Positions 1,803 to 38,612 of a stretch of DNA of 53,035 nucleotides are shown here, piece by piece; position 1 is the first letter of the stretch, and each line of letters opens with the position of its first letter. The position numbers and the translations under genes were made by a program. Source of the DNA: Pseudanabaena biceps PCC 7429 (lineage in GTDB: Bacteria > Cyanobacteriota > Cyanobacteriia > Pseudanabaenales > Pseudanabaenaceae); the NCBI RefSeq assembly GCF_000332215.1, contig NZ_ALWB01000007.1, forward strand, positions 1 through 53,035, in the 5' to 3' direction. A model generated the notes under the pieces. The model searched no databases and had not been told where the DNA came from. It saw only the letters and a program-made list of their open reading frames with translations.

Positions 1803-1905
1803 ATACCAAGTTAAGAAATGGCTACGCCATTTCTTAACTTGAAAACCCTTACGAGGTTTAGTTTTTAATTCACAAAACTGTGGCAACACTTTCGTGAATT
1901 GGTAT
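1803..1905. repeat. Palindromic element family A, full 103-bp copy (A1)
   Basis: Ends are ATACCAA and TTGGTAT. First hairpin arm is AAGTTAAGAAATGGC with loop TAC and a perfect complement. The second, weaker hairpin is TTCACAAAACTGTGGC paired with AACACTTTCGTGAA. The middle reads GAAAACCCTTACGAGGTTTAG. It lies between the divergently transcribed kinase and gltX. Confidence 0.9.
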
Positions 1906-3470: not shown

Positions 3471-3565
3471 ACTAAGTATCTAGGCGCAATTAAATATAAA
3501 ACCCCAAAAGCTGTAGCGCACGCGCAGCGTGCGCTACAGCTTTTGACTCTGGTTTTTAATTATGC
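3471..3565. repeat. Family D palindromic element
   Basis: Frame AAGTATCTAGGCGCAATTAA at the left and GGTTTTTAATTATGCC at the right. The core hairpin has perfect 18-bp arms, 3506-3523 and 3527-3544 (AAAAGCTGTAGCGCACGC), with loop GCA. Confidence 0.85.
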
Positions 3566-7305: not shown

Positions 7306-7407
7306 TACCAAAGTTCAAAATGGCGTAGCAATTTTGAACTTTGAAAATCCTTACTGGGTTTGGCTTTTAATTCCCAAAAGTGTTGCCGCACTTTCGTGAA
7401 TTGGTAT
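7305..7407. repeat. Family A element, full 103-bp copy (A3)
   Basis: Ends ATACCAA and TTGGTAT. The first hairpin has arms CAAAGTTCAAAATGGC and CAATTTTGAACTTTG, different from A1 but still complementary. The middle is GAAAATCCTTACTGGGTTTGG. The last bases are shared with the start of the following family E element. Confidence 0.9.
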
Positions 7408-7519
7408 AGCTGCCGCCAGTCTTGTTAGGACAAAATTAAACCCCAAAAGAGGGTTGCCGCGCTCCGCGCGGCAACCCTCTTTTGGGGTTTATGTCCTGAT
7501 ACAGTTGACGGCAGCTATA
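7405..7519. repeat. Family E palindromic element, full copy (E1)
   Basis: Terminal inverted repeats are TATAGCTGCCGCCA and TGACGGCAGCTATA. The core is a near-perfect palindrome, with AAACCCCAAAAGAGGG followed by TTGCCGCGC in the left arm and its complement on the right, around a TCC loop. Confidence 0.88.
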
Positions 7520-7520
7520 T

Positions 7521-7667
7521 AACGTGAGTTCGGGATAATTTGAAACGGGCTTTGAGAAAGGGTTTGCTACACAAATCCTTTCTCAAAGCTCAAAAGTAAA
7601 AGCCTTGCGTAGCAAGGCTTTTACTTTTGAGCTTTGAAAATTTGCCAACTTAACGCGAACTGACGTT
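7521..7667. repeat. Family C element, 147 bp (C1)
   Basis: Ends are AACGTGAGTTCG and CGAACTGACGTT (12-bp inverted repeat, one mismatch). It holds two hairpins: an AGAAAGG-type stem, then AAAAGTAAAAGCCTTGC paired with GCAAGGCTTTTACTTTT. A second copy of identical length lies at 24387-24533. Confidence 0.88.
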
Positions 7668-12483: not shown

Positions 12484-12566
12484 TAGCCACCCAAACCTAG
12501 AAGAGCGTACCGCCCGCTGCGCGGGCGGTACGCTCTTCTAGGTTTTAAGTTTACTTGCCTAGCTAC
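12484..12566. repeat. Family D element
   Basis: Arms CCTAGAAGAGCGTACCGCCC and complement around a TG-rich centre, followed by the family right end TTTACTTGCCTAGCTACTTA. The same arm sequence occurs at 11.8 kb and in the last 60 bases of the window. Confidence 0.85.
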
Positions 12567-12686
12567 TTATAGCTGTCGCCAAGTGTATTAGGACATAACC
12601 CCCAAGAATTGAGTGGCGGCGCTTCGCGCCGCCACTCAATTCTTGGGGGTTTGATTTGTCCTCATTCAAGTGACTGTAGCTATACA
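12567..12686. repeat. Family E element (E3)
   Basis: Starts TATAGCTGTCGCC and ends GTGACTGTAGCTATA. Perfect 26-bp arms at 12597-12622 and 12626-12651, loop TTC. The left end directly follows the preceding family D element. Confidence 0.86.
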
Positions 12687-18384: not shown

Positions 18385-18789
18385 CTAAGCCGTAACTAAA
18401 GTTCTTTTATAGGCTGCCCAACCGCCAAGGTGAGAAATATCAATCCAATTGAACTTTTCAATTAATTCTTGAGGATAGAAAAAGGCGGTAAGAACCTCGC
18501 CATCCTCAAGATAAACGTCCGTAGGATACATATGGGGTGGTTCGTTTTTGGCAAGATATTCAAATTCATCGTCACGCATCTCATAAACCTCCCCAGGAAT
18601 AGAAATTCCACCTGTCTCAACTTCATAAATTGCGGGATGCCATGCATCTCCTGCGGCATGAAGGCGATAACGTGACTGAGTATTTGCCGCACGTATAAAT
18701 TTTGCGTTCTGCAAATTGCCATGATCTGGTTGTCCGCGCAGTGCCGAACCACAGATAAATACATGTCTTGTCCCGTTGGATACTGTCAT
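18385..18789 (-). CDS. AtzF C-terminal / gamma-glutamylcyclotransferase-like protein
   Basis: 134 residues. It starts HVFICGSALRGQPDHGNL and continues with YRLHAAGDAWHPAIYEVETGGISIPGEVYEM, FEYLAKNEPPHMYPTDVYLEDGEVLTAFFYP. This is the GGCT-like fold of the small C-terminal domain of allophanate hydrolase (AtzF), here as a stand-alone protein. In full-length AtzF this domain decarboxylates N-carboxyurea; the stand-alone role is not established. It has no amidase partner here. A role in purine or urea nitrogen use is inferred because its upstream palindrome matches that of the urate operon. Confidence 0.75.
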   Translation of the reverse strand: MTVSNGTRHVFICGSALRGQPDHGNLQNAKFIRAANTQSRYRLHAAGDAWHPAIYEVETGGISIPGEVYEMRDDEFEYLAKNEPPHMYPTDVYLEDGEVLTAFFYPQELIEKFNWIDISHLGGWAAYKRTLVTA

Positions 18790-18879: not shown

Positions 18880-18908
18880 ATGTGAAGTACGATTTTTCAT
18901 ATTAAGTA

Positions 18909-19011
18909 ATACCAATTCCCAAAATGGCGTTGCCATTTTGGGAATCTCAAAACCTTACTGGGCTTGTTTTTCAATTCACTGAAGTGTTGGCTCACTTCAG
19001 TGAATTGGTAT
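18909..19011. repeat. Family A element, full 103-bp copy (A5)
   Basis: Ends ATACCAA and TTGGTAT. First hairpin arms are TTCCCAAAATGGC and GCCATTTTGGGAA, again different from A1 and A3. The second hairpin is TTCACTGAAGTG paired with CACTTCAGTGAA, also changed on both sides. Confidence 0.9.
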
Positions 19012-19014
19012 AGG

Positions 19015-19059
19015 GGTTTTCAAAGTTCAAAATGGCTACGCCATTTCTTAACTTGGTAT
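19015..19059. repeat. Family A left end in reverse, with chimeric hairpin arms (A6)
   Basis: Read on the minus strand it starts ATACCAAGTTAAGAAATGGC (A1-type arm), but its partner arm is GCCATTTTGAACTTTG (A3-type). The outer parts therefore no longer pair fully. It abuts A5 tail to tail. Confidence 0.8.
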
Positions 19060-19060
19060 T

Positions 19061-19168
19061 ACCCAGTAGCTGGGCATAATTAAAAACTAGAGTCAAAAGC
19101 TGTAGCTTACGCGCAGCTTTCGCTACAGCTTTTAGGGTTTTATATTTAATTGCGCCTAGATACTTAAG
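19061..19168. repeat. Family D element with mismatched arm centre
   Basis: Frame AGTAGCTGGGCATAATTAAA and TATATTTAATTGCGCCTAG. Arms AAAAGCTGTAGC / GCTACAGCTTTT pair, but the inner TTACGC / GCTTTC do not. It may terminate the aminotransferase gene. Confidence 0.8.
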
Positions 19169-19170
19169 AA

Positions 19171-20403
19171 TTAGTAACTGAGTTGTTTGACTGCTTCATG
19201 AATAGCATCAGCAATATAATCAATATGTTCATCGGTATAACGTTCGTTCCAAGGCAATACCAATACAGCCTCTAAACCAGCATAGGTACCAGCAAATTTT
19301 GCCGCATTATAATCCACAGCCTCAGGGCTCGCCAGAGTAAAGGGAAAGCGTGAATTACCAAATGTACGTTGTTTCTGGAAAATCTCGCACATAAATGCAG
19401 GCTTTTGAATATAGCGGGGGGCAGAGAAAATACCCTTGGTTTTTAAATTCTTTGCCAATCCTACAGCGCCATCAGCAATTTTACTGCTATCCACGCTCAA
19501 GCAATATTTCCAATAGACATGAGTATTTCTAGCATCAATTTGCGGCGTAGAAATTCCATTCAGTCCCTGTAGCTTGCCAGTTAATTTGCTAGCCGCATCC
19601 TGACGATTTTGGACAATCCCCTCGAGTTTATCAAGTTGGGCAACTGCAACCGCTCCTTGCAATTCACACATCCTTCCATTGAGTGCGAGAAAGTAATGAT
19701 CGGGTTGGGGATCGCCGTAGCCCCAAGCTTTGTTGACAAATAAAAACATTCGTCTAGCAAAAGCATCGTCATTGGTCGTGACGATCCCGCCTTCTCCCGT
19801 TGTAATATGTTTACCCTGTTGCAAACTAAAACAACCAATGGAACCGATCGCTCCAACTTTTTTGCCATTGTGCTCGGCTAAAAATGACTGGGCGCAATCC
19901 TCAATGATGGGAATACCACGAGATTCAGCAAGTTGGACAATCTCAGTCATATTGCAGGGATTGCCAAATAAATGGGTGACAATAATCGCTTTTGTGCGAT
20001 CGCTTAAACAAGATTCAATTGACTCGGCAGTGACATTCCAAGTTCTGGGATCGACATCAGCAAATACAGGAATAGCACCTTGGTAGAGAATCGGAGTCAA
20101 AGCACCCATATCGGTAATGGAAGTGGTGATAATCTCATCACCAGGTTCGGGATCGATCGCCGAAATAGCAGTATGAATAGCCCCTGATCCTGAAGAACAG
20201 GCATAGGCGTATTTAACACCAATCATTTCGGCAAACTGATTTTCAAGGGCTTTGACAAAACTTCCTTTGGTGCTGGTGAGAGTACCGCTGCGAATCGCTT
20301 CGGATAGCAATTTAATCTCTTCTTCGCCTAGAGTCCGCCCAGATGCATCTTGATCGGAAGGCAATTGTATTAATTTTGTCAGTGTTGGTGTAGATTCACT
20401 CAT
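19171..20403 (-). CDS. DegT/DnrJ/EryC1/StrS-family aminotransferase
   Basis: 410 residues. PLP enzyme of the sugar-aminotransferase class, which acts on nucleotide-linked keto sugars for surface polysaccharide, O-antigen or glycoside synthesis. Visible are YACSSGSGAIHTAISAID (cofactor phosphate site), IPVFADVDPRTWNV, IIEDCAQSFLAEHNGKKVG, and the Schiff-base Lys198 in FSLQQGKHITTGEGG. The C-terminal YWKYCL and LPWNERY parts complete the fold. No sugar dehydratase or epimerase lies nearby, so the product cannot be named; some members act on scyllo-inosose instead. A glycosyltransferase follows upstream, on the same strand, after a 530-base gap. Confidence 0.92.
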   Translation of the reverse strand: MSESTPTLTKLIQLPSDQDASGRTLGEEEIKLLSEAIRSGTLTSTKGSFVKALENQFAEMIGVKYAYACSSGSGAIHTAISAIDPEPGDEIITTSITDMGALTPILYQGAIPVFADVDPRTWNVTAESIESCLSDRTKAIIVTHLFGNPCNMTEIVQLAESRGIPIIEDCAQSFLAEHNGKKVGAIGSIGCFSLQQGKHITTGEGGIVTTNDDAFARRMFLFVNKAWGYGDPQPDHYFLALNGRMCELQGAVAVAQLDKLEGIVQNRQDAASKLTGKLQGLNGISTPQIDARNTHVYWKYCLSVDSSKIADGAVGLAKNLKTKGIFSAPRYIQKPAFMCEIFQKQRTFGNSRFPFTLASPEAVDYNAAKFAGTYAGLEAVLVLPWNERYTDEHIDYIADAIHEAVKQLSY

Positions 20404-22092: not shown

Positions 22093-22985
22093 AGCTTTGT
22101 ACTCAGAAAGTGGATTTCAAATAACCTTGGGAACGAGTTGGAAGAGGGAAGCCAGGAACTGAAACATCAGGATTTCCTTTTGCATCACCATCATCCCTTC
22201 AACTTATTAAGGTTCTTTGAACAGGGAAACCAACAAATTAATACCTAATATAATCACTAAAAGCCGACAAAAAGACAATCATCAAAGTTATACGTAAGTT
22301 ATATATAAGTTATACATAAATAGGGCTTTAAGTATATTTTCTTAAAATAAATATCGCCTAAAAACTACCTAAGTTAGTCTATTAAATAAATACTATTTTT
22401 AGAATAGGTAGCTGGGCATAATCAAAAAACAGAACTAAAACCTATAGCGCACGCGCAGCATACCATATAGGTTTTAGGGTTTTATATTTAATTGCGCCCA
22501 GCTACTTACTAGTAAAATCGCTAATCAATAGCCTCAAGATATAGAAATTCTAAATGATTTATGAGAAGCTTTGACTTCCCCTAGCCTTCAGGATAATTTG
22601 TCTGATAGAAGTAGAAGCCCTATTTTTCTCGTAAATGAAATAGGACTGCTATAGTCTCAAGCCACCTAATAAATGTTGCAGGGAAATTGTTACTAAAAAG
22701 ACAAATAACAAAAAATTATATAACTCTAACTATATATTTTCAGCAAACTTAATCTAGGGTTTGACAATCCTATTTTTTACATATTTTCTTAGTCTTAGTT
22801 AAAAAATATTTGTTATATCTAAAGCACACTAAAACATAGTTTATAGCAATTTGTTGGCTGGGGGGGTGTGATCGCGATCGCTTAATTATTGAGACAAGGA
22901 TCTCTCAATTAGAGCCTATATCATCACATAGCAATCCCTTTCTTCAATGCACAATATATAGGTAAATTAAGGGAGGGACAAATCA
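22093..22985. other. Long AT-rich intergenic region
   Basis: Apart from the family D element at 22408-22508 it contains no recognised gene or RNA. A G-run (GGGGGGGTGTGATCGCGATC) lies near 22861. The last 60 bases form the leader of the small ORF at 22986. Confidence 0.5.
22408..22508. repeat. Family D element with one diverged arm
   Basis: Frame GTAGCTGGGCATAATCAAAA and TTATATTTAATTGCGCCCAG. The outer arms AAAACCTATA / TATAGGTTTT pair, but the inner left GCGCACGCGC faces GCATACCA, which no longer pairs. Confidence 0.8.
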
Positions 22986-23204: not shown

Positions 23205-23587
23205 AATCTTGCCAACAATCCAGACAAATAGTGTGAAATTGCTATATTCTCTGATTTTAAATTCGATTTAGATCGCTTTCTACAAAGTTGCCATAATCTA
23301 TACTGCTAATTAACTGCTAATTAACTGCTAATTAACTGCTAATTAACTGCTAATTAACTGCTAATTAACTGCTAATTAACTGCTAATTAAGGTTCAATTC
23401 GCCATTCGTTACCAATTATCTCTCAGTCACTTCAGTTATTTAAGTCGTCAGATCAAGTCATAAATTAAGTCATCAAAAAAGCCATCAAAAAAGTATGAAG
23501 TCATGATCATTTGTCCCACAAGCCCATAGTCTTCATTGGTTTTAAATTGCGATAGAATACTTAAGAAATTAATATCGCAATATATCC
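23205..23587. promoter_or_regulatory. Leader region of purC with tandem repeat
   Basis: Besides the 11-bp array at 23302-23389, it holds short duplications (AAGTCAT/CATCAAAAAA near 23470-23500). No riboswitch fold (purine or otherwise) was recognised. Confidence 0.4.
23302..23389. repeat. 11-bp tandem repeat, eight copies
   Basis: Unit ACTGCTAATTA repeated eight times without visible error, about 200 bases before the purC start. One turn of the helix per unit. Confidence 0.95.
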
Positions 23588-38530: not shown

Positions 38531-38612
38531 TCAGGACATAAAACCCTAAGCCCTGCGGCGCACGCAGCGTGCGCCGCAGGGCTTAGGGTTTTATGTTTAA
38601 TCAAGCCCACTT
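38531..38612. repeat. Palindrome with family D/E hybrid frame
   Basis: Left flank TTAGGTCAGGACATAAAACC is of the E type and the right flank TTTTATGTTTAATCAAGCCC of the D type. Perfect 26-bp arms at 38540-38565 and 38567-38592 (core CCCTGCGGCGCACGC). Confidence 0.8.

What the first reader, a model, noticed from the sequence alone, without database searches (positions are those of the whole stretch)
19015..19059. A chimeric hairpin that looks like a half-converted intermediate
One arm is the A1 type (GTTAAGAAATGGC) and the other the A3 type (GCCATTTTGAACTTTG), so the outer stem is mismatched. This is what one would expect if one arm had been replaced and the other not yet repaired to match. The family D copies at 19061-19168 and 22408-22508 show similar one-sided changes in their centres.
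Basis: seen in the sequence. Interest (0 to 1): 0.6.

Follow-up and report, generated by a model that had tools for sequence, protein, structure and literature searches.

The report
Recombinant hairpin of a mobile repeat
The odd hairpin is the end of a tiny mobile DNA repeat in a Pseudanabaena cyanobacterium whose two arms come from two different sub-families; it looks like a rare recombination product in a genome where hairpin arms are otherwise quickly copied back into agreement.

Summary
The hairpin at 19015-19059 is really chimeric. Its outer arm is the common A1 sequence and its inner arm the A3 sequence (5 mismatches in 14 nt, joined in the shared core AAATGGC-NNN-GCCATTT). It is not free-standing: it is the left-end half, on the minus strand, of a ~104-bp non-coding TA-flanked repeat (a MITE), abutted by a complete copy of the same family (18907-19012). 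In 1.54 Mb of this Pseudanabaena genome 100 of 118 such hairpins have perfectly matched arms and 4 (3 types) are chimeric; three more two-type hairpins lie elsewhere in the genome. No other genus genome (25) has an A1 x A3/AAAGCTCA chimera. The sister 'Roaring Creek' has a matched hairpin at one chimera's position, an empty site at another, and its own chimera where our genome is matched. At the window locus the unique flanks are not adjacent in the sister or other relatives, so the chimera lies at a lineage-specific rearrangement junction. Orthologous hairpins show compensated arm changes and flipped loops far above chance, the mark of template switching.

The parts
19021..19036 (-). Inner arm of the left-end hairpin (A3 type, CAAAGTTCAAAATGGC on the + strand), the side towards the element body
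   Evidence: same arm in the matched copies at C62, C83 and C136 and in one arm at 7309 and C242
19037..19039 (.). 3-nt loop TAC; TAC and its reverse complement GTA are about equally common in the family
19040..19055 (-). Outer (terminal) arm, A1 type (reverse complement of CAAGTTAAGAAATGGC), followed by the GGTATTA end
19030..19046 (.). 17-bp core AAATGGC-TAC-GCCATTT shared by all sub-families; inferred junction of the two parental copies
   Evidence: every chimera found changes type across this core
19013..19061 (-). Left-end half of a ~104-bp TA-flanked MITE: TAATACC-hairpin-GAAAACCCC, cut in its spacer; the right half is missing
   Evidence: G007:C388 shows the same nesting with both halves present
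18907..19012 (+). Complete MITE of sub-family AATTCCCA: TAATACC, left hairpin 18915-18945, spacer CAAAACCTTACTGGGCTTG, right hairpin 18972-19007, GGTATA
   Evidence: about 40 copies listed at 86-100% identity in the genome
19062..19169 (-). Family D hairpin repeat with ~20-bp imperfect terminal repeats and a mismatched centre (TTACGC/GCTTTC)
   Evidence: D is also next to the aminotransferase gene in G007 (L032)
18385..18789 (-). Left flanking gene, AIG2/gamma-glutamyl cyclotransferase-like; its usual neighbour in the genus (5-hydroxyisourate hydrolase-like, named from its sequence) is no longer next to it
19171..20403 (-). Right flanking gene, DegT/DnrJ/EryC1 aminotransferase
7309..7343 (+). 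A3-type left-end hairpin of a full element in the same window (one arm carries GCAATTTT)
1807..1841 (+). Matched A1-type left-end hairpin of a full 103-bp element

Best explanation
The hairpin is the recombinant left end of a MITE. Two copies with different hairpin arms (A1 and A3) were joined at the short core AAATGGCNNNGCCATTT that all sub-families share, so the terminal arm comes from one copy and the inner arm from the other. The route I think most likely is short-homology recombination between copies at different places, as part of the lineage-specific rearrangement that brought the cyclotransferase-like gene next to the aminotransferase gene; deletion between two neighbouring copies is the closest rival. 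Shown: the anatomy, the chimeric state, its rarity, the non-collinear flanks, other chimeras of the same form, matched or empty states in a sister genome, and the concerted evolution of hairpin arms. Inferred: that the junction formed in the core, that it belongs to the rearrangement, and that the arms of such a chimera would later be homogenised by template switching within the hairpin.
For: All chimeras switch type across the core: window, C14 and C36 (L065, L095), C23 (L082), C110 (L112, the reciprocal combination), C103 (L113), C242 (L185). Where the body is long enough to type (C14, C36, C110, C103) the inner arm agrees with it and the terminal arm does not. At C110 the sister G007:C602 has the same left flank with a matched AAAGCTCA hairpin, and G000 keeps that terminal arm but has an A1 inner arm and A1-like body. 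At C40 the sister has a CAAAG-type terminal arm with an AATTCCCA inner arm and body, while G000 is matched. The cyclotransferase-hydrolase neighbourhood is kept in nearly all genus genomes checked and broken in G000 exactly at this repeat cluster. At C242 the outer arm and the unique flank beyond it differ from the sister together.
Against: The window junction cannot be compared with its pre-state: the sister contig stops inside D. The rearrangement could have happened in the adjacent complete element or in D, which offer longer homology, with the chimera older. A 17-bp core is short for RecA recombination. At C110 the flanks are collinear with the sister, so rearrangement is not needed in every case.
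Confidence: 0.5

Rival explanations
1. Half-converted intermediate: one arm of a matched hairpin was overwritten in place by gene conversion or template switching from another copy, and the second arm has not yet been corrected.
For: Arms do change in concert: 27 compensated stem pairs in 35 orthologous hairpins, and loops are flipped or nearer to flipped in 17 of 36. The mechanism is known to homogenise short inverted-repeat arms and invert spacers (PMC8604942; PMC8794818). Such a state would be short-lived and therefore rare, as seen (4 of 118).
Against: In the chimeras that can be typed the inner arm matches the body, so a single junction suffices. The flanks at the window locus are rearranged. 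One chimeric element (AAAACTAA outer, GATTTCAA inner) sits at two loci.
Confidence: 0.17
2. Local deletion between two neighbouring hairpins: an A1 copy and an A3 copy lay side by side and the stretch between their cores was lost by replication slippage, fusing the outer arm of one to the inner arm of the other.
For: Head-to-tail and nested copies are common (L002, L047, L084, L086), and cores 33-159 bp apart occur 11 times in 1.54 Mb. At C110 the flanks are collinear with the sister, as a local event predicts.
Against: No pre-deletion tandem was found at the window site, and its flanks are not collinear with the sister.
Confidence: 0.24
3. Ordinary decay of one arm by point mutations and small indels.
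For: Edit distance between the two arms is only 3 when indels are allowed.
Against: The result is exactly the commonest sub-family arm; one-sided mismatches are ~0.4% per site; nearly the same pair of types recurs at C103 and, reciprocally, at C110.
Confidence: 0.03
4. Assembly error joining two repeats.
For: The genome is in 464 contigs and several contigs end in hairpins.
Against: The chimeric stretch is 35 bp with a shared core of only 17 bp, below usual k-mers and read lengths; independent chimeras occur on other contigs and in the sister assembly; the C110 chimera has collinear flanks.
Confidence: 0.06

Closest known systems
Bacterial MITEs, such as Nezha of Anabaena/Nostoc (Zhou et al. 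2008, cited in PMC10969869 and PMC3733652)
   Same: Short, non-coding, inverted ends, many copies, foldable
   Different: Each end carries its own hairpin whose arms differ between sub-families; ends TATACC/GGTATA; no sequence comparison with Nezha was made here; no transposase partner found
Small dispersed repeats of cyanobacteria (Elhai et al. 2008, not held in the library; cited in PMC3733652) and GTAG-type REPs (PMC3733652)
   Same: Short intergenic palindromes, often nested in one another (nesting in the small dispersed repeats is from memory)
   Different: ~104-bp two-hairpin element with TA target; no GTAG or CGTC tag seen at the ends
Template-switch homogenisation and spacer inversion of short inverted repeats (PMC8604942, PMC8794818)
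   Same: Compensated arm changes and reverse-complemented loops at orthologous hairpins
   Different: Here the loops are flipped in about half of the orthologous hairpins between two species at ~95% identity; the chimera itself needs material from another copy

Membership tests
MITE | Short element without coding capacity | tested here: met
   103-bp ATACC...GGTAT unit in ~50 listed full copies, too short for a gene
MITE | Terminal inverted repeats | tested here: met
   (T)ATACCAA ... TTGGTAT(A) in nearly all full copies
MITE | Target-site duplication / empty site in a relative | tested here: met
   C36 element: G007 has TTTTA|ATTGG, G000 TTTTATACC...GGTATTAATTTG, i.e. a TA duplication. One locus only
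MITE | Autonomous element with the same ends supplying the transposase | tested here: inconclusive
   A scan of 1.54 of 5.47 Mb and a look at ORFs between six candidate end pairs showed no obvious transposase by inspection; no profile search was run on them
Gene-conversion intermediate | Both matched parental states at the same site in sister strains | tested here: inconclusive
   Found at C110/C602 (one matched state only) and C40/C450; not readable at the window site
Template-switch homogenised inverted repeat | Arms change in matched pairs and spacers invert | tested here: not met
   Met for orthologous hairpins as a class, but this hairpin itself has unmatched arms

The most novel reading that the evidence does not exclude
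Chimeric hairpins such as this one feed a cycle: recombination at the shared core swaps one arm, then template switching within the hairpin copies one arm onto the other. New matched arm types would thus arise in two steps, and the MITE family diversifies its hairpins without selection for pairing.
Probability: 0.3. Interest if true: 0.65.

Novelty: new member of a known kind. Interest (0 to 1): 0.48.

Why it matters
Compensated changes in hairpin stems are usually read as proof of selection for structure. Here a mobile repeat with well over a hundred copies in one genome, plus a close sister genome, shows arms and loops being rewritten within a few percent of divergence. The rare chimeras show what happens when two different arms meet. 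This gives a natural system for measuring template switching in bacteria and warns against taking covariation alone as evidence for an RNA function.

Tried and rejected
Search for the window's A1-D junction in G007: none. Search for the missing half of D in G007: 12 D copies, none recognisable as the aminotransferase-side copy. Search for an autonomous partner between distant ends: only ordinary genes seen by inspection. Paper searches for Pseudanabaena MITEs or palindromes: nothing relevant; Elhai 2008 is not held. Rejected: simple decay and a reading of the D centres as chimeras. An early count of 138 hairpins double-counted symmetric copies; the corrected number is 118.

Full report
What is there. 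The window is contig C7 of a 5.47-Mb draft genome. It belongs to Pseudanabaena: its closest held relative (G007) is Pseudanabaena sp. 'Roaring Creek', as the same 12,419-base contig carries a 99% identical flanking protein, with about 95% DNA identity in the flanks. The intergenic region between a gamma-glutamyl-cyclotransferase-like gene and a DegT-type aminotransferase gene is filled by three repeats. They are a complete MITE at 18907-19012, the finding's hairpin as the left-end half of a second MITE in the opposite orientation (19013-19061), and a family D hairpin repeat.

The element family. Full copies are 103 bp from ATACC to GGTAT, flanked by TA-like bases. They carry a left-end hairpin with the core AAATGGC-NNN-GCCATTT, a spacer near AAAACCCTTACTGGGTTT, and a right-end hairpin. 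Symmetric 'solo' hairpins (ATACC...GGTAT, 43 bp) make up 19 of 118. At one locus the sister genome has an empty site with a single TA. Copies insert into one another, repeatedly in the spacer TA: the window, L077, and G007:C388 where both halves of the interrupted element remain. At the window only the left half remains, which is why the hairpin looked free-standing.

The chimera. In the strand sense of its element the outer arm is CAAGTTAAGAAATGGC (A1, the commonest type) and the inner arm is the complement of CAAAGTTCAAAATGGC (A3, present in only six elements genome-wide). Of 118 left-end hairpins in 1.54 Mb, 100 are perfectly matched over 14 nt, 9 have one mismatch, and four have four or more: the window copy, two copies of an AAAACTAA/GATTTCAA element at C14 and C36, and a solo AAAGCTCA/CAGCAAAG hairpin at C23. 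A pattern search of 26 genus genomes found A1 x A3/AAAGCTCA combinations only in this genome: the window, C103 (same sense) and C110 (reciprocal sense). C242 combines AAAGCTGA with AAAGTTCA.

Sister-genome tests. C110: flanks collinear in G007, which has a matched AAAGCTCA hairpin at the same left flank; G000 keeps that outer arm but continues with an A1 inner arm and A1-like body. C40: G000 has a matched AAAGCTCA element, while G007 has a CAAAG-type outer arm with an AATTCCCA-type inner arm and body. C36: chimeric element present in G000, empty in G007. C242: inner arm and left flank shared, outer arm and right flank different. Window: the cyclotransferase gene is followed in G007 and in nearly all of the genus by a hydroxyisourate-hydrolase-like gene. 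In G000 that gene is on another contig beginning in a D half-hairpin and a solo A hairpin, so this intergenic region is a lineage-specific junction. The corresponding G007 contig starts inside D, and no A1-D junction was found in G007, so the pre-state of this very hairpin remains unread.

Why arms usually match. In 36 hairpins of any family that could be aligned without gaps between G000 and G007, the loop was unchanged in 12, exactly reverse-complemented in 6 and nearer to the reverse complement in 11. Leaving out one hairpin whose element is inverted between the genomes, both partners of a stem pair had changed at 33 positions, 27 of them compensated. Sliding the partner by one to four positions gives 4-9, and shuffling arms between hairpins gives 4.3 +/- 2.2 with a maximum of 13 in 5000. 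Examples at single orthologous elements are AAGTTGAG/AAGTTAAG at C33 and AAAACTAA/AAAGCTAA at C103. Arm homogenisation with spacer inversion is the described signature of template switching between short inverted repeats (PMC8604942; PMC8794818). Selection on pairing could contribute for terminator-like hairpins but does not explain flipped loops.

Conclusion. The most economical account is one recombination junction in the shared core, probably linked to the rearrangement at this locus. Whether dispersed copies or neighbours were joined is open. Two points weigh against it as the whole story: inner arms agree with their bodies, and a chimeric element occurs at two loci.

Limits. Only 28% of the genome and about 11% of the sister were read in full. 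The genome-wide chimera count used a pattern limited to one pair of sub-families. Orthologous cases C110, C40 and C242 were read by eye from alignments. Direction of change was not polarised with an outgroup: other genus members are only ~80% identical, and those checked lack the repeats next to the aminotransferase gene.

Noticed in passing
All orthologous hairpins, G000 vs G007: Loop sequences of intergenic hairpins of several families are flipped to their reverse complement, or nearer to it, in about half of the cases between two species at ~95% identity.
   Followed up: yes
L075 around 13030 vs G007 contig C504 (L187): Same flanks, but the MITE lies in opposite orientation in the two species and both arms differ in a matched way (AAATTAAG vs GAGTTAAG): inversion in place or independent insertion at the same TA.
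   Followed up: partly
18385-18789 and G000:C284:1-131 (L115): A gene neighbourhood kept in nearly all of the genus (cyclotransferase-like gene next to hydroxyisourate-hydrolase-like gene) is broken in this genome, with A and D repeats at both broken ends.
   Followed up: partly
G000:C284:1 and G007:C209:1: Contigs begin inside D-family palindromes, so perfect hairpins appear to break the short-read assemblies.
   Followed up: no
window 3505-3545, 7437-7491, 7583-7637, 12493-12651, 38536-38596 and others: Several further families of long perfect hairpins (stems 19-30 bp, mostly 3-nt loops) fill the intergenic regions, often with loops in both orientations.
   Followed up: partly
18972-19007 and other right-end hairpins: Right-end hairpin arms also vary in matched pairs between copies (TTCAC/GTGAA, TTCCC/GGGAA, TTTCC/GGAAA).
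   Followed up: partly
window 23307-23389: Tandem array of TAATTAACTGC-like units.
   Followed up: no
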